Source: an uncultured Alphaproteobacteria bacterium | GTDB taxonomy: Bacteria > Pseudomonadota > Alphaproteobacteria > RF32 > CAG-239 | Reading direction: 5' to 3' | Assembly: GCA_949297145.1 (NCBI GenBank) | Contig: CASFQO010000001.1 | Span: 1-64,000 of the forward strand | DNA: 64,000 bases | Shown: positions 42,524-50,544 of the stretch, piece after piece | How the letters are laid out: every line of letters begins with the position of its first letter | Position numbering within the stretch: position 1 is the stretch's first letter | Made by a program: the position numbers and the translations under genes | The notes under the pieces: generated by a model | Told to the model about the DNA's origin: nothing | Seen by the model: only the letters and a program-made list of their open reading frames with translations | The model's database searches: none

Positions 42524-43837
42524 TTAATCATTCAGCGTAACCAAGATTTCTTCAATTTTCCGTTTGTTTAAGCGAGTGATTTTAAATGAGAAATTTTGAT
42601 ATGTTAGTACAATATTCTTCTTTTCGGAAGGAAATTCGTTGGAAAGAGAGAGCAAAAATCCGGCAAATGTGTCATAATCACCATCGGGTAAATGAACGTT
42701 AAAATATTCTTCCACATCTTCAATAGGCGTATTACCGAGAACGAGCCAACTCTTTTCATCTTTAGGGGTAATATCGGGAGAAGCCGGAGGAAGCGAGTTG
42801 TCATCTTCCAATTCCCCGACAATTTCTTCCAATAAATCGTTCATGGTAACAATACCTTCCACCCCGCCGTATTCATCCACCACAACGGCAAAATGATTTC
42901 GAGATTTTTGCATCAACGCAAACAATTCGTCAATCGGTAGCGTTCCACGAATAAACTGCGCCGGTTTAACGGCTTTTTGAAAAACCGCCTGCCGTCCTTC
43001 GTTTTTAAATTTAAAGAAATCTTTGATATGAAGCGTCCCGATAATGCCATCAATATTTTTATCGCAAACAGGATAAACCGAAAAGCGTGAAGCAATCATA
43101 CTCTTTTCCCACTCATCAAGAGAGGATTCTGTATTAAGAAAAGAAATATCCAGTCTGTGCGTCATAACTTTTTCAGCCGTTTTATCATCAAATTCAAAAA
43201 TATTATGGATAATTTCTTTTTCCATATCGTCAATAGCGCCGTTTTCACTGCCGACGTCAATCATAATCCGAATTTCTTCTTCGGTAACATTTTCTTTATT
43301 GGCATCAGGATTAACTCCAAGACTTTTAAGCACAAGATTGGTAGAGGCCGTAAGCAACCACACCAAAGGCGCAAAGATTTTTGCAATAACGTAAATCATC
43401 CCCGACATAGCAAGTCCGATTTTTTCGGCATGTTGCATGGCAATACGTTTTGGAACAAGTTCTCCCAGAATAAGAGTAACATAAGAAAGGATTAAGGTAA
43501 TACCGATAACCGCTAAAACATCTAGCTTAGCCGGAGAGATGGTTGAGCCATGAGCAATCATCCAATCAACAATTCGGTCAGAAAAGTTGTCTGCAGCAAA
43601 TGCACTTCCGAGAAATCCGGCAAGGGTGATGCCGACCTGAATGGTCGCTAAAAATTTAGCCGGTTGTGAAGTTAAAGAAACTAAACGCTGAGCACGTTTA
43701 TCTCCGGATTCGGCCAAACGTTTAAGACGTGTATCGTTAATAGATATAACGGCAATTTCAGCACAAGCAAAAATAGCATTGAGAATAATTAAAAAGAGTT
43801 GCAGCAAAAGTAATTCTGTAACGGTAAAATCAGACAT
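42524..43837 (-). CDS. CNNM/CorC-type membrane protein with CBS domains
   Basis: 437 aa from the ATG at 43837 with AAAGGA upstream; the in-frame extension to 43900 has no ribosome site. N-terminal CNNM membrane domain (residues 1-175; TELLLLQLFLIILNAIFACAEIAV, then GITLAGFLGSAFA), two CBS domains (about 200-330; VMTHRLDISFL, VDEYGGVEGIVTMNDLLEEIVGE) and a C-terminal CorC_HlyC domain (WLVLGNTPIEDVEEYF). Family members export Mg2+ or other divalent cations. It shares the minus-strand run with DUF4186 and GtrA. Confidence 0.93.
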   Translation of the reverse strand: MSDFTVTELLLLQLFLIILNAIFACAEIAVISINDTRLKRLAESGDKRAQRLVSLTSQPAKFLATIQVGITLAGFLGSAFAADNFSDRIVDWMIAHGSTISPAKLDVLAVIGITLILSYVTLILGELVPKRIAMQHAEKIGLAMSGMIYVIAKIFAPLVWLLTASTNLVLKSLGVNPDANKENVTEEEIRIMIDVGSENGAIDDMEKEIIHNIFEFDDKTAEKVMTHRLDISFLNTESSLDEWEKSMIASRFSVYPVCDKNIDGIIGTLHIKDFFKFKNEGRQAVFQKAVKPAQFIRGTLPIDELFALMQKSRNHFAVVVDEYGGVEGIVTMNDLLEEIVGELEDDNSLPPASPDITPKDEKSWLVLGNTPIEDVEEYFNVHLPDGDYDTFAGFLLSLSNEFPSEKKNIVLTYQNFSFKITRLNKRKIEEILVTLND

Positions 43838-44055
43838 ATAAATCCTTTCAGTATACATTAAAGATATCGCATAGAGTGTAAAAATTAAATTAAAAAACAA
43901 AAGGTAAGAAGAGGAAATTATTGCCTTTTAGAAAAAAAATCCTTTAGCACGAACAAAAGTGCAGTATATCAAAAGTTAGATTGATTTTTTTCAAAAACAT
44001 ATTAGAGAAAACCATTAAGTGTCACATTATGGAGGAAACAAAATAGGGGGAATAG

Positions 44056-45210
44056 ATGAAAAAGTTTTGCTGTATCATACTCTGCGCCATACTTTGGTCA
44101 AATAGCGCTTGGGCTATGCAAATTTTTATAAAAACGTTAACCGGAAAACACATCACTTTAGAAGTTGAGCCCACAGACCGCATAGAAGATGTAAAAGCAA
44201 AAATTAAAAATAAGGAAGATGTCCCAGAGGAAAAACAACAACTCATATTTGCAGGAAAAGTGCTAGAAGATGGAAATACGCTGCAAGACTACAGTATAAT
44301 AAAAGATTCCACGCTTCATTTAGTTCTTAAAAAAGAAACTCCGGATCCCATAAATATTAATGCAACGAACGTTGTTATCCAAAATGCATCCATTTTATAT
44401 AATAATATAGCGGCAAGAACAACCGGAGGCATCAACACCTATAGCGGTGGTGAACAAATAGATATAAAAAATAACTCTTCCCTATGGGTTAATACGATTG
44501 CAGCCCATAATCAGTATCAAGATGCTACGACGTCAGGATTGACAATGGGATATGAAAAACGCTTGCAAAAGTATAAGTTCGGATTAGGGTATAGTTACTT
44601 ACGAAATGATGATATAGAGGGGATATTAACCTCAGCAGATGCAAATACGCATAGCGGGTTCATATATGGTGAATATAAACCTAATGCTTGGTACACAAAT
44701 GCTATATTATCGTATGGGCATACGCGATTTGATGAAGAGAATGGTTCAAAATATAATTTCCAAACCATCGGCGCGCAGGTGATGAGCGGTTATGAAATAG
44801 GATACTTGACACCGGAAATTGGAATGAGATATTTGCATATCTGGAGCAATAATTACCACAATGCGCAATATGTCACAATTAAGGGGCAAGATGAAAATAT
44901 CTTGACCGGTATTATGGGCATCAAAGCTGCAAAAGAATGTCAAATAAATGAAAAATATACGCTAGTTCCGCAAGTAAAACTGTCAGGATTATATGATTTT
45001 TCTTCATCACAAAGATATTTATGGGGAACACAATATAGTATTCCTATACAGTTAGAGCAAAAGCGCTTATCACGATTTGCAACAGAAATTAATGTTGGCG
45101 TAGAGTTAAAAGAGCAAGAAAGTTGGAAAACCTACTTAGGCTATTATGGACAACTGAGAAATAATGCCGATATGCATGCGGTTATGCTGAATTTCCAATA
45201 CAATTTATAA
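44056..45210 (+). CDS. Ubiquitin fused to an autotransporter beta-barrel (surface-displayed ubiquitin)
   Basis: 384 aa. Residues 1-20 are a signal peptide ending AWA, so cleavage would leave Met21, the first residue of a ubiquitin: [19 protein letters not shown], then [20 protein letters not shown] and [20 protein letters not shown]. By hand, about 52 of the first 71 residues equal human ubiquitin. All seven lysines (6, 11, 27, 29, 33, 48, 63) and Leu8, Ile44, His68 and Val70 are kept. RLRGG is replaced by KKETP, so conjugation through the C-terminus is impossible. A Gly/Asn/Ser-rich linker (about 95-150) leads to an autotransporter barrel (about 150-384, [20 protein letters not shown]). No other passenger is present. 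AGGGGG precedes the ATG. Codon use is AT-rich like its neighbours, so any transfer from a eukaryote is not recent. Function unknown; host mimicry is inference. Confidence 0.9.
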
Positions 45211-45338: not shown

Positions 45339-46577
45339 ATGAATAGAAGAGAATTTTTGATGAGTACACTGGCGGTATTTGCTTTGTCAGCATTGCCGAA
45401 GTTGACATTTGCCGAAAAAATTGCCGTATCAGATTCTGTTAAAGCCGAGATAAATCCGCATAACAAATTAGGTTTCGGCTTTATGCGGTTACCTCTGAAA
45501 AATAAAGAAGACCAAACCTCCATAGATTATGAAGAACTAAACAAGATGGCAGATACCTTTTTAGCAAGAGGATTTACATATTTTGACACAGCGTGGATGT
45601 ATATGGGGTATGAAAGTGAAATAGCCATCAGAAAGTCATTGGTAGAACGTTATCCTCGTGATAAATATACGGTTGCGAGCAAAATGCCGATAGGGTATTT
45701 GAAAAAGCCGGAAGACCAAGAGGAAATCTTTAATAAGCAGTTAGAAAAAACGGGACTGGACTATTTTGATTATTATCTGGTGCATAATGTAAACGCAGGC
45801 ACCATTGGTAATGCACGCAAATATAAAACATTTGAATTTCTTGAGAATAAGAAGAAGGCCGGAAAGATAAAAAAGATAGGTTTCTCTTTCCACGATAAGC
45901 CGGAACTTTTGGAAGAGGTGTTAAAGGAAAATCCGAATGTAGACTTTGTACAGTTACAAATCAATTACATAGATTGGGACAATGTCGGCATCCAATCCCG
46001 CCGGTGCTATGAAATTGCTCAGAAATATAACAAGCCGGTAGTGGTCATGGAGCCCGTCAAAGGCGGCAGTCTTGCAATCGTACCAGAAAGCGTAGAAAAG
46101 ATATTTAAGCAAGCCGAACCCAATATGTCGGTGGCATCGTGGGCGATTCGCTATGCGGCCAGCTTAGACGGTGTGATGATGGTCTTAAGCGGAATGAGCA
46201 ATATGGAACAACTGGAAGATAACACTTCATATATGCAGAATTTCAAACCACTTGATGAAAAAGAGATGAAAGTCATAGAAGAAGCGGTAAAAGCGATGCA
46301 TGCGGCAGTTCAGATTCCCTGCACTGCCTGCAAATATTGCGTTGAATTTTGCCCAATGAAAATTGCAATACCGGATTATTTTGCTTTGTACAATGCTGAG
46401 AAACAAGAAAGAAAAGATAAGCCTTTCAATGCGCAACGGATGTATTATGCAAATCTAACCAAAACACATGGTAAAGCATCATCTTGCATAAGCTGTAAGA
46501 TGTGTGAAAGACATTGCCCTCAACATATAGAAATCAGCAAATGGATGAAAGAAATCGCAAAAACGTTTGAGGGATAA
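45339..46577 (+). CDS. Tat-exported aldo-keto reductase with a ferredoxin tail
   Basis: 412 aa. [15 protein letters not shown] is a Tat-like signal with twin Arg. The AKR barrel keeps the tetrad: Asp and Tyr in FDTAWMY, Lys in VASKMP and His in YLVHNVN. The C-terminal part has two 4Fe-4S cysteine sets ([12 protein letters not shown] and [12 protein letters not shown]). AKR plus 4Fe-4S proteins occur widely in anaerobes; the substrate is unknown. AGAGAGGAGG precedes the ATG. Confidence 0.92.
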
Positions 46578-48058: not shown

Positions 48059-48104
48059 ATATCAATAGGGAATAGTTAGTAAAAATCATAAGATGAGGAA
48101 TAAA

Positions 48105-49826
48105 ATGTCAAATAATTCAAAAGAACAAGAAAATACGCCGAGTTCCCCAAAAGAACCGGAAACAGCAGTCGTTGCAGAAAAAGCATTTGCAGATTATTTT
48201 GAAACCACAGGACGCAAGAGTTTTAAACAGTTTTATTACGATTGGCACATAGACGCCATGATAGAACCTTTCGCAGAATTGGCAGAATATTTTAATCGCC
48301 GCTATCCGGAAAACACGAGTGAATATTTTGATAATTTTGTAAAAGAATATACAGACAGCGTAAATACGTATAATATTGACTGCGAAAAGTTTTGTTCCGT
48401 CAAATCCGGCATTCCGAACAAAGACGCAGAGTTATCTAAAATTATAGATAAAATAGAAACATTTAGCTTTGAATTTCGGCAATTTGCCTATAGTTTTATG
48501 TCAGAACACGATTATGTTGCCGAATTTGGTAACTGGACATATAAACCGAACTATCCATATTCCCACATGCATGGCCTAGCCATTTCCGTTGATATCTTAA
48601 ACAAAATTTCCGAGCACTATGCTTCATTTAATAACGACAAAGTTGCTGAAAAAACACGCTATGTCACCGATAATTATTTGCGCACCAATATCGCCAAAGA
48701 TTATCGTTATAACGCTCGCTATAATTATGCATACAGAAAACAATCTACCAGACGATTCGTTGCACTGCGTAACCAAATGAGTGAAGAATATAAAACCGGA
48801 CAGTACAATGATTTTGTAGAAAAATTTCAAGTAGAAACACTGTCAGGTATGAGTTATGGAAAATATCGTCCGAACGGGTTTGAGCTGGAATTTTATGTTC
48901 CGGAAGAATATGGCAATTATGCTGAGCTAATTGAATATTTAAAACAAAAACACGGTTGGAAAAAAGTCTATACAAGCAACAAAAATCCGGAAGTTTATAC
49001 GGATAATGAAGCCGCCGGCGTGATTGAACGCGATGAGAGCTTAGCCGCGATGAAAGGATTAGCACCGGTAGAGTATGCCTCACGGATTATAAAGTCTAAG
49101 CAAGATGAAAAGGAATGTCTGCGCATAATGGATTCTTTTGATAAAGGCCATGCCAATGTACATTGTTCGCTGCATCAACACGTATCAGCTGAAGGTTTTG
49201 ATTTAAATACATATAAAAGATTGGTAAAGCGCATGATGCAGCATGAAGATATGATAGTAGGGAACTTTGCCGCGCCGGAACGCCGTAACAATAATTTGTT
49301 ATATGCGACCTATATCAGCCGCAATTTGAGTTCAAACGGCAAGAGAGATTATCCGTTTTTGTGCGTGATGACGGATATGTGCGATGATTTAACCGAATTA
49401 AGAGAAATGGTCGGATTCGGTCATAAATATAAAACCTTAAACATTATGCCGTCAAAAACCGTAGAGTTTCGCTATATGAATGCCAATTTTAACTCCAGAT
49501 ATGTGGAAGCATTTTTGCAATTTAATCGGGACTTCGTGAACAGTGCGGTTAATAACGAAGGGACACACATCAATCGTCCGTTAGCCAATAAATTTAATTG
49601 GATGCAAAATCTGGCAGAAGATAATAAGACGGTATTAGGCAAATTGAGTTACTACTATCAAAAGCCCTATGATCAATATCGTCCGGAAAAAACAGTTGAC
49701 GCCCATACGATTTATGAAGAAAATGTTTATGCGCGCCATGTAGCGGATGCAATCAATGCAACCGGAAAATTTGGGTACTATAACAGTTGGTTCTTAAAGA
49801 GGGTAAGAGATGCAAGAGCAAAATAA
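48105..49826 (+). CDS. Amidoligase-family enzyme (GCS/glutamine-synthetase-like)
   Basis: 573 aa from the ATG at 48105, with AGGA 5 nt upstream; an earlier ATG at 48093 would contain that site. Residues 1-230 are helical and family-specific. The amidoligase core follows: NGFELEFYVP (Glu260, Glu262), NVHCSLHQHV (His353, His357) and KTVEFRYMNA (Glu454, Arg456), as in COOH-NH2 ligases of the glutamine-synthetase/GCS fold. These form amide bonds to amino acids or peptides with ATP. It overlaps the next gene by 17 bp. Substrate unknown. Confidence 0.85.
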   Translation: MSNNSKEQENTPSSPKEPETAVVAEKAFADYFETTGRKSFKQFYYDWHIDAMIEPFAELAEYFNRRYPENTSEYFDNFVKEYTDSVNTYNIDCEKFCSVKSGIPNKDAELSKIIDKIETFSFEFRQFAYSFMSEHDYVAEFGNWTYKPNYPYSHMHGLAISVDILNKISEHYASFNNDKVAEKTRYVTDNYLRTNIAKDYRYNARYNYAYRKQSTRRFVALRNQMSEEYKTGQYNDFVEKFQVETLSGMSYGKYRPNGFELEFYVPEEYGNYAELIEYLKQKHGWKKVYTSNKNPEVYTDNEAAGVIERDESLAAMKGLAPVEYASRIIKSKQDEKECLRIMDSFDKGHANVHCSLHQHVSAEGFDLNTYKRLVKRMMQHEDMIVGNFAAPERRNNNLLYATYISRNLSSNGKRDYPFLCVMTDMCDDLTELREMVGFGHKYKTLNIMPSKTVEFRYMNANFNSRYVEAFLQFNRDFVNSAVNNEGTHINRPLANKFNWMQNLAEDNKTVLGKLSYYYQKPYDQYRPEKTVDAHTIYEENVYARHVADAINATGKFGYYNSWFLKRVRDARAK

Positions 49827-50544
49827 AGTATTTGATGTTATCAATCCGAACAGTTGTGAGGGTTTGATATTAACCTGTGAACATGCTTCATCAAAAATAC
49901 CTGAAGCATACCACAATTTAGGTTTGTCAGAAGACAAATTAAATACGCATATAGCCAGAGATAAGGGCTGTAAGGAGCTAACCGAGGCCTTAGCGCAAAA
50001 GTTAGGATGCACAACATTTATCGCCGGATATTCAAGACTGTTTATAGACTACAACCGCCGTGAAAATGAGGATAGTTTGATTGTCGACGAAAGTGATAAA
50101 ATCCTTATTCCCGGCAATCAGAACTTGAGCGATAATGAGAGAAAATATCGGATAGAAAACTTTCATCGCCCATATTATCAAGCCATAAAAAATAAGATAG
50201 CCGAGTTACAAAACAAAGGTATAACGCCGCAGATTTTCTCAATTCATGGCTTTACGCCGCAGTTACGCGGTGGCACCTATCGTCCGTGGAACGCAGGCAT
50301 TTTATATGTAACGCCCAATAAGTTGACTGAAAAATTGTTAAAGGGCTTGCAAAGTAAAGATAATTTAAAAGTGGATGCCAATGTTCCCTACGATATGCGC
50401 CAATACAATACCGGCGCTGCAGCAATTTGCGGAGAGGATATCGGGCTTGAAAATGCTGTGATAGAAATAAAAGATACCGAGTTTAATGATATGCAAGCAG
50501 GTGTAACAAAGTGGCGAGATTTACTGCTTAACATTTTGGTTTGA
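49810..50544 (+). CDS. N-formylglutamate amidohydrolase-family protein
   Basis: 244 aa. Family motifs: LILTCEHASSKIPEAY, HIARDKGCKELTEALA, YSRLFIDYNRRE and FSIHGFTPQLRGG, with the His and Glu residues expected for the metallopeptidase-like HutG fold. AGAGGG is 6 nt before the ATG, inside the amidoligase gene, so translation is coupled. No other histidine-degradation gene is present, so the classical hut role is unlikely. Pairing with an amidoligase suggests that one enzyme forms and the other cleaves an amide bond in the same small metabolite or peptide. Confidence 0.88.
   Translation: MQEQNKVFDVINPNSCEGLILTCEHASSKIPEAYHNLGLSEDKLNTHIARDKGCKELTEALAQKLGCTTFIAGYSRLFIDYNRRENEDSLIVDESDKILIPGNQNLSDNERKYRIENFHRPYYQAIKNKIAELQNKGITPQIFSIHGFTPQLRGGTYRPWNAGILYVTPNKLTEKLLKGLQSKDNLKVDANVPYDMRQYNTGAAAICGEDIGLENAVIEIKDTEFNDMQAGVTKWRDLLLNILV

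What the first reader, a model, noticed from the sequence alone, without database searches (positions are those of the whole stretch)
44056..45210. Ubiquitin displayed by an autotransporter barrel
The reading shows a signal peptide, a near-complete ubiquitin starting exactly at the predicted cleavage site, a short linker, then an autotransporter beta-barrel. About 52 of the first 71 residues equal human ubiquitin by hand alignment; all seven lysines and the Leu8/Ile44/Val70 patch are kept, but the C-terminal RLRGG is missing. So the cell seems to show ubiquitin on its surface as a ligand or acceptor, but not as a conjugating tag. Secreted ubiquitin is known in Bacteroides fragilis (BfUbb); I know of no ubiquitin autotransporter passenger. 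Exposed K48, K63 and Met1 could be ubiquitinated by, or could decoy, host enzymes. Inference: host mimicry or immune modulation.
Basis: partly seen in the sequence, partly recalled or inferred. Interest (0 to 1): 0.96.

Follow-up and report, generated by a model that had tools for sequence, protein, structure and literature searches.

The report
Ubiquitin displayed by bacterial autotransporters
A bacterium carries a gene that appears to hold a ubiquitin, of the type made by trichomonad protists, on its cell surface by an autotransporter anchor, and related bacteria carry the same fusion.

Summary
Window 44056-45210 (+) encodes 384 aa: signal peptide, ubiquitin (residues 21-92), short linker, pore helix and 12-strand type Va autotransporter barrel. 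It is no assembly chimera: ubiquitin is found in 7 of 153 genomes of the family, own genome included, six as an open fusion and one frame-broken, and in another family (G318). The ubiquitin is of trichomonad type: 17 of 18 aligned fusions carry 7-8 of the 8 residues that separate this type from human. One relative, P0109, scores as identical over 76 residues to Trichomonas vaginalis chain 5xy3_m. P0109 keeps RLRGG; the other 17 aligned fusions, the window copy among them, lack it. Most fusions keep the seven lysines while R42, Q49 and R72 erode. A different alphaproteobacterial genus has ubiquitin autotransporters with another ubiquitin type and a dissimilar barrel (4 of 25 genomes). Best reading: a conjugation-dead ubiquitin shown on the surface as a non-covalent mimic for a eukaryotic ubiquitin-recognising partner. 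A BfUbb-like antibacterial role is the main rival. Topology and function are untested.

The parts
44045..44050 (+). AGGGGG, likely ribosome-binding site
   Evidence: read from the sequence
44056..44115 (+). signal peptide, residues 1-20 (MKK...AWA)
   Evidence: sequence and hydropathy; A/V-x-A directly before ubiquitin residue 1 in 15 of 15 fusions examined
44116..44331 (+). ubiquitin passenger, residues 21-92 (ubiquitin 1-72); RLRGG absent
44332..44361 (+). short linker, residues 93-102
   Evidence: model
44362..44412 (+). alpha helix, residues 103-119, expected to lie in the barrel pore
   Evidence: model; matches to NalP and EspP units begin at residues 91-97
44476..45210 (+). autotransporter beta-barrel, residues 141-384, 12 long strands, and stop codon
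   Evidence: PF03797; models; EstA, NalP, EspP, AIDA-I matches
42524..43900 (-). left neighbour: CNNM/CorC-type protein (458 aa)
   Evidence: Pfam; also beside the aldo/keto reductase in G003, G009 and G017, where a NUDIX-type frame stands instead of the fusion
45339..46577 (+). right neighbour: aldo/keto reductase with 4Fe-4S motifs
   Evidence: Pfam

Best explanation
A type Va autotransporter whose whole passenger is a eukaryote-derived ubiquitin. Sec exports it; signal peptidase cuts before ubiquitin Met1; BAM inserts the barrel; the helix at 103-119 fills the pore and ubiquitin folds outside, tethered by about 10 residues. An ancestor of this barrel family gained a ubiquitin of trichomonad (parabasalid) type. 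Most of the lineage then kept the ubiquitin body (fold, lysines, F4 side, residues 51-60) but let the E1/deubiquitinase face and the RLRGG tail decay. So it most likely acts as a non-covalent mimic: a surface ligand or decoy for a ubiquitin-recognising partner of a eukaryote (protist or animal) that shares its habitat. Shown by computation: anatomy, fold, recurrence, ubiquitin type, conservation pattern. Inferred: surface exposure, the partner, the benefit.
For: Anatomy and fold. The closest barrels: 11 of 11 proteins found by the barrel alone carry ubiquitin, one of them (P0002) being the window's own 99% cluster. Trichomonad type: 17 of 18 aligned fusions have 7-8 of 8 diagnostic residues; 12 of 239 other fetched proteins have 6 or more, all 12 short proteins without an organism name; P0109's unit scores 155.8 bits on 5xy3_m against 155.6 for an identical unit of that length and 138.5 for human; 5XY3 is the T. 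vaginalis ribosome (PMC8860606 passage); ubiquitin clade support 100/98. Body kept, tail face lost: 48 of 72 sites invariant in 7 cluster representatives (42 of 72 over all 17 rows), R42 kept in 1 of 7. In 11 diverged pairs of 6 genes, ubiquitin dN is 0.12-0.20 against barrel 0.29-0.43, with synonymous sites near saturation. A second genus carries ubiquitin on a dissimilar barrel.
Against: No partner is known, and most ubiquitin-binding proteins are cytosolic (recalled). In 4 of 4 close pairs the ubiquitin dN/dS (0.06-0.27) is slightly higher than the barrel's (0.03-0.19), on few changes. The hydrophobic patch is not fully kept: I44 is V in 4 of 7 and V70 is kept in 3 of 7. P0122, inside this barrel clade, has 0 of 8 diagnostic residues and has lost K6, K11, K27, K29, K33, L8 and H68. 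Ubiquitin folds fast and is very stable (recalled), which could hinder passage; a periplasmic position cannot be excluded. Presence is patchy: 7 of 153 genomes. Barrels alike at about 30-37% stand in most of the family without ubiquitin (104 of 153 genomes match the barrel), so the barrel itself is not ubiquitin-specific.
Confidence: 0.45

Rival explanations
1. Antibacterial display: the surface-held or released ubiquitin binds a protein of competing bacteria and inhibits them, as secreted BfUbb of Bacteroides fragilis does.
For: BfUbb has a tested role: the mature 76-aa synthetic protein inhibits sensitive strains, bovine ubiquitin does not, and it lacks the terminal Gly (PMC5705921: abstract, results part 1 and discussion read). 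Same layout: signal peptide cut exactly before ubiquitin residue 1, altered tail. Patchy presence (7 of 153) and another gene at the same locus in three relatives would suit a competition locus.
Against: The 17 trichomonad-type fusions stay close to a eukaryotic ubiquitin (57-72 of 72 identical to that type), whereas BfUbb is 63% identical to human (PMC3352274, passage); bovine ubiquitin, identical to human, was inactive on the B. fragilis strains tested. No family suggestive of immunity was named for the 10 nearby proteins scanned, but one of them had no match at all, and BfUbb is reported to need none. An anchored passenger must still reach its target.
Confidence: 0.3
2. Acceptor or sink: exposed lysines and Met1 are ubiquitinated by, or hold, enzymes of a host or protist that takes up the cell.
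For: All seven lysines kept in 6 of 7 cluster representatives, six of seven in G318; native Met1 would be exposed after cleavage. P0109 keeps RLRGG before a linker, a potential deubiquitinase site.
Against: E1, E2 and deubiquitinases act in the cytosol (recalled); R42, Q49 and R72, on their usual contact face (recalled), erode; P0131 lost K29 and P0124 lost K48; P0122 lost five lysines.
Confidence: 0.1
3. Periplasm-facing module: the ubiquitin domain stays inside as a stable N-terminal domain of an outer-membrane barrel.
For: Ubiquitin is small and very stable (recalled); topology was not tested.
Against: The helix at 103-119 lies in the stretch that aligns with solved autotransporter units, whose passengers leave the cell (outward passage is established knowledge). 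The genome has five other autotransporter frames with long passengers.
Confidence: 0.1
4. No present function: a relict of gene transfer held by chance, or a neutral passenger.
For: Patchy presence; one genome (G022) has a frame break in the linker at an A-run.
Against: Open frames in 6 of the 7 genomes; dN well below dS; slower change than the barrel across diverged pairs; a second ubiquitin autotransporter type elsewhere.
Confidence: 0.05

Closest known systems
BfUbb (ubb) of Bacteroides fragilis
   Same: Eukaryotic-type ubiquitin with a bacterial signal peptide cut before residue 1; altered C terminus; acquired from a eukaryotic source (PMC5705921, PMC3352274)
   Different: BfUbb is free and secreted; here it is fused to an autotransporter barrel. 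BfUbb's source is unclear in print (an entomopoxvirus and giant viruses are named); here it is trichomonad-type
Type Va (classical) autotransporters: EstA, NalP, EspP, AIDA-I, AaaA
   Same: Signal peptide, passenger, pore helix, 12-strand C-terminal barrel
   Different: Passenger is a single ubiquitin of about 72 aa, where most carry hundreds of residues (recalled); the other five barrels of this genome sit in frames of 834-1837 aa
Trichomonas vaginalis ubiquitin (chain 5xy3_m)
   Same: P0109's unit scores as identical; diagnostic residues shared by 17 of 18 aligned fusions
   Different: A cytosolic conjugating protein there (recalled; the chain is 132 aa, a ubiquitin with a tail); exported, tethered and mostly tail-less here
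Secreted nematode ubiquitin (Globodera), as described in PMC5705921
   Same: Ubiquitin with a signal peptide used outside the producing cell
   Different: Eukaryotic, with a short C-terminal peptide, not described as membrane-anchored

Membership tests
Type Va autotransporter | C-terminal 12-strand barrel of PF03797 type | tested here: met
Type Va autotransporter | Sec signal peptide | tested here: met
   Sequence and hydropathy, AWA at -3 to -1; no dedicated predictor was run
Type Va autotransporter | alpha helix through the pore | tested here: met
   Helix 103-119 in both models, inside the stretch aligned with solved units from residue 91-97 on; coordinates were not inspected
Type Va autotransporter | passenger reaches the cell surface | not testable with these tools
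   needs an experiment
Ubiquitin | ubiquitin fold and sequence | tested here: met
   PF00240 85.8 bits; rmsd 0.6 over 74 residues
Ubiquitin | free C-terminal LRLRGG for conjugation | tested here: not met
   Window copy reads VLKKETPD; of the 18 aligned fusions only P0109 keeps RLRGG, followed by a linker
Trichomonad-type ubiquitin | H12 T20 R22 D25 N54 Q57 S60 D64 | tested here: met
   8 of 8 in the window copy; clade support 100/98
BfUbb-like antibacterial ubiquitins | free secreted ubiquitin that inhibits bacteria | not testable with these tools
   Layout shared in part, activity unknown; BfUbb's sequence was not fetched or compared

The most novel reading that the evidence does not exclude
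Showing ubiquitin on the outside is a recurrent bacterial strategy. One alphaproteobacterial family took ubiquitin from trichomonad-like protists and made it the sole passenger of an autotransporter; another alphaproteobacterial genus did the same with a different ubiquitin and barrel; phage-like contigs give ubiquitin an IPTL-CTERM sorting tail. In these lineages ubiquitin works outside the cell as a non-covalent signal or mimic, with conjugation mostly lost.
Probability: 0.45. Interest if true: 0.96.

Novelty: new variant of a known kind. Interest (0 to 1): 0.92.

Why it matters
Ubiquitin is the hallmark eukaryotic tag, and among secreted bacterial ubiquitins the papers seen here give a tested role only to BfUbb. 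A family of surface-tethered, mostly conjugation-dead ubiquitins, traceable to a protist lineage, would be a concrete case of protist-to-bacterium gene transfer. It also makes testable what extracellular ubiquitin is for: partner binding, immune or protist signalling, or killing of rivals. The domain is small, stable and easy to assay.

Tried and rejected
Assembly chimera: rejected. Human or animal donor: rejected for the window type (0 of 8 human states at the diagnostic sites; tree). Phage or plasmid carriage of the window's ubiquitin: no match in 50,697 phage records; among 72,556 plasmid records only Ruminococcus albus and Pseudoalteromonas ubiquitin domains; P0109 found nothing in viral contigs.

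Independent origin of the two autotransporter types: supported by unlike ubiquitins (100/98 clade), unlike linkers and no significant blastp match between the window barrel and the f43 barrels, but the test does not reject one clade of all ubiquitin barrels (p-AU 0.375), so it is not proven. Passenger swap in P0122: its barrel lies inside the clade (97/82) and its ubiquitin outside; holding it with the family's ubiquitins gives p-AU 0.0425, but adding the trichomonad-like and Fimenecus rows gives 0.238, so only suggested. Tree cautions: the barrel tree warns of long branches meeting, G318 among them; the ubiquitin tree has 72 columns and an unsettled bootstrap.

A search with the signal peptide plus ubiquitin was filled by eukaryotic-type polyubiquitins. 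A deubiquitinase (OTU) in the own genome: none found, but the control rang nowhere, so this shows nothing. Promoter and terminator scan: at chance level. CXCR4 as receptor: a review names candidate receptors (PMC10892293, passages), but nothing here points to one. The kin of Fimenecus were not searched. VIA-align rows name no other fold for residues 20-384, which excludes nothing.

Full report

IT IS A FAMILY, NOT A CHIMERA. A search with the barrel alone returned 11 proteins of 420 candidates, and 11 of 11 carry ubiquitin; one of them, P0002, is the window's own 99% cluster. That search reaches close relatives only: a looser search found barrels of this kind in 104 of 153 genomes of the family; apart from the seven ubiquitin genomes the listed matches are at about 26-38% identity, and ubiquitin occurs in only 7 of those genomes. 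P0109, 60% identical over the full length, stands for 176 sequences on 50 contigs. The 7 of 153 include the own genome and lie in 2 of 16 genera (the same 7 among the 91 relatives). Six have an open fusion; G022 has a frame break at an A-run in the linker. Among 385 Alphaproteobacteria drawn across the class, 6 had a match, 5 over cut-off: two from this family (own genome included), two from genus g58 (below), and G318 from a third family, with a 401-aa fusion of the window's kind (its ubiquitin passes Pfam's cut-off, its barrel the autotransporter cut-off). In 398 genomes of the phylum only G000 and one weak, unlike protein (G583) matched. The autotransporter profile rings six times in the own genome, the ubiquitin profile once.

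THE LOCUS. The gene lies between a CNNM/CorC-type gene and an aldo/keto reductase. In G003, G009 and G017 the same two neighbours flank about 620-640 bases with a NUDIX-like frame instead (Pfam NUDIX 63.1 bits for the G003 frame). G003 and G009 carry their fusion on another contig. The gene has thus come and gone or moved. Its G+C (0.36) matches the window (0.37).

WHERE THE UBIQUITIN CAME FROM. P0109's ubiquitin differs from human at eight places: H12, T20, R22, D25, N54, Q57, S60, D64. 17 of 18 aligned fusions carry seven or eight of these; P0122 carries none. Of 1,142 ubiquitin units in 239 other fetched proteins (capped hit lists, so a sample), 24 carry five or more, in 12 short proteins without an organism name; the other 227 proteins carry at most three. 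P0109's unit scores 155.8 bits on PDB chain 5xy3_m, against 155.6 for an identical unit of the same length and 138.5 for human. A paper names 5XY3 as the Trichomonas vaginalis ribosome (PMC8860606, passage). I could not read the chain's letters, so identity is inferred from the score. In a 41-row tree, window-type ubiquitins, the unnamed trichomonad-like ubiquitins and a Fimenecus (Clostridia) protein form a clade with support 100/98 (72 columns, many forks unresolved, bootstrap not settled). A parabasalid-type donor is the simplest reading.

WHAT SELECTION KEPT. Among 11 diverged pairs of six genes the ubiquitin changes more slowly in protein than the barrel (dN 0.12-0.20 against 0.29-0.43), while synonymous sites are near saturation in both. 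In the four close pairs the contrast is absent, even slightly reversed (ubiquitin dN/dS 0.06-0.27, barrel 0.03-0.19, on few changes), which tells against a strong claim. In one representative of each of seven clusters under 80% identity, 48 of 72 ubiquitin sites never vary; over all 17 trichomonad-type rows of A1, 42. F4, L8, H68, residues 51-60 except G53, and the lysines stay in the representatives, except K11R in G318; K29 and K48 are each lost in one further row. R42 stays in 1 of 7, Q49 in 1 of 7, V70 in 3 of 7, R72 in 2 of 7, and I44 is V in 4 of 7; of the 18 aligned fusions only P0109 keeps RLRGG. R42, Q49, R72 and the tail belong to the face used by E1 and deubiquitinases (recalled). 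So the protein is kept as ubiquitin but mostly not as a donor for conjugation. P0122 is the exception, with five lysines lost.

A SECOND KIND. Genus g58 of family f43 carries another set, in 4 of the 25 genomes of that family searched: signal peptide, ubiquitin of common eukaryotic type (0 of 8 diagnostic residues in three, 2 of 8 in G320), a longer linker, and an autotransporter barrel over cut-off in the two proteins scanned. Their barrels give no significant blastp match to the window's and form their own clade (100/100), while window-type barrels group with G318 (100/100) among the barrels of their own and G318's families (100/98); the program warns of long branches, G318 among them. The test does not reject one clade of all ubiquitin barrels (p-AU 0.375). 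Two ubiquitin acquisitions are well supported; two fusions are likely, not proven. A viral-collection contig (L048) shows a further layout with a partial barrel, 24.6 bits against cut-off 26.

HOW IT MAY WORK. Sec export, cleavage before ubiquitin residue 1 (A/V-x-A in 15 of 15), barrel insertion and outward passage of ubiquitin follow from the type V pathway (established knowledge); surface exposure is inferred. With the body kept and the tail lost, non-covalent recognition is the likeliest use. The closeness to a protist's ubiquitin points to a eukaryotic partner, whether protist or animal. BfUbb shows that a secreted ubiquitin can instead be an antibacterial protein (PMC5705921: abstract, results part 1 and discussion read; PMC3352274: passages). 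I recall, without a held paper, later work naming a peptidyl-prolyl isomerase as BfUbb's target; a search listed no such paper. I put mimicry at 0.45 and antibacterial use at 0.3.

NOVELTY. Searches of 5.39 million open papers for ubiquitin with autotransporter terms (9 of 10 listed; 67: 15 of 139 listed) and for secreted or horizontally acquired ubiquitin listed no ubiquitin autotransporter by title or abstract start; texts were not read apart from the papers named. Subscription journals are mostly not held. Both halves are known kinds; the joining, its recurrence and the protist-type source are what appears new.

Noticed in passing
L047, L049, L051 (IMG/VR contigs; L049:1985-2431): Contigs encoding signal peptide + ubiquitin + IPTL-CTERM sorting motif (L049 scanned: PF18203 28.4 bits, TIGR04174 33.6 bits; the same tail reads in L047 and L051). 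In L049 terminase and portal genes lie about 1-2 kb downstream (PHROGs). A third way to anchor an exported ubiquitin.
   Followed up: partly
L048:3878-4819: Signal peptide + common-type ubiquitin + partial autotransporter-like barrel close to a contig end; no significant blastp match to the window barrel.
   Followed up: partly
L052, L054, L057, L058 (G416, G320, G908, G901): Ubiquitin autotransporters in another alphaproteobacterial genus, 4 of 25 genomes of its family.
   Followed up: partly
L009:6001-6720 (Candidatus Fimenecus, Clostridia MAG, 229.8-kb contig): 239-aa protein with a signal-peptide-like start, a diverged ubiquitin domain bearing 8 of 8 trichomonad-type residues and a C-terminal part without a Pfam match.
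   Followed up: partly
L030:4923-5663 (Ruminococcus albus 7 plasmid pRUMAL01): 246-aa 'ubiquitin family protein' of common type with a signal-peptide-like start, in a row of hypothetical genes near a phospholipase C domain protein and a dockerin protein.
   Followed up: no
L043:4001-4228: Viral-collection contig encoding a signal-peptide-like start + complete ubiquitin ending in RLRGG and a stop.
   Followed up: no
L031 (Pseudoalteromonas plasmid): Ubiquitin-like stretch (41% over 56 aa) near the start of a very large Ig-like protein, with a gene for an outer-membrane beta-barrel protein just upstream.
   Followed up: no
L005:1435-2593 (G022): The fusion is broken by a frame change at an A-run in the linker: sequencing error, slippage or a broken gene; the reads would tell.
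   Followed up: no
L056:1495-2274 (G583): 259-aa protein starting with a weak ubiquitin-like domain (24.0 bits, cut-off 25.4) and without a signal peptide by eye, between two unscanned frames.
   Followed up: no
window 48093-50544: Amidoligase_2 protein followed, with overlapping frames, by an N-formylglutamate amidohydrolase-type protein.
   Followed up: no
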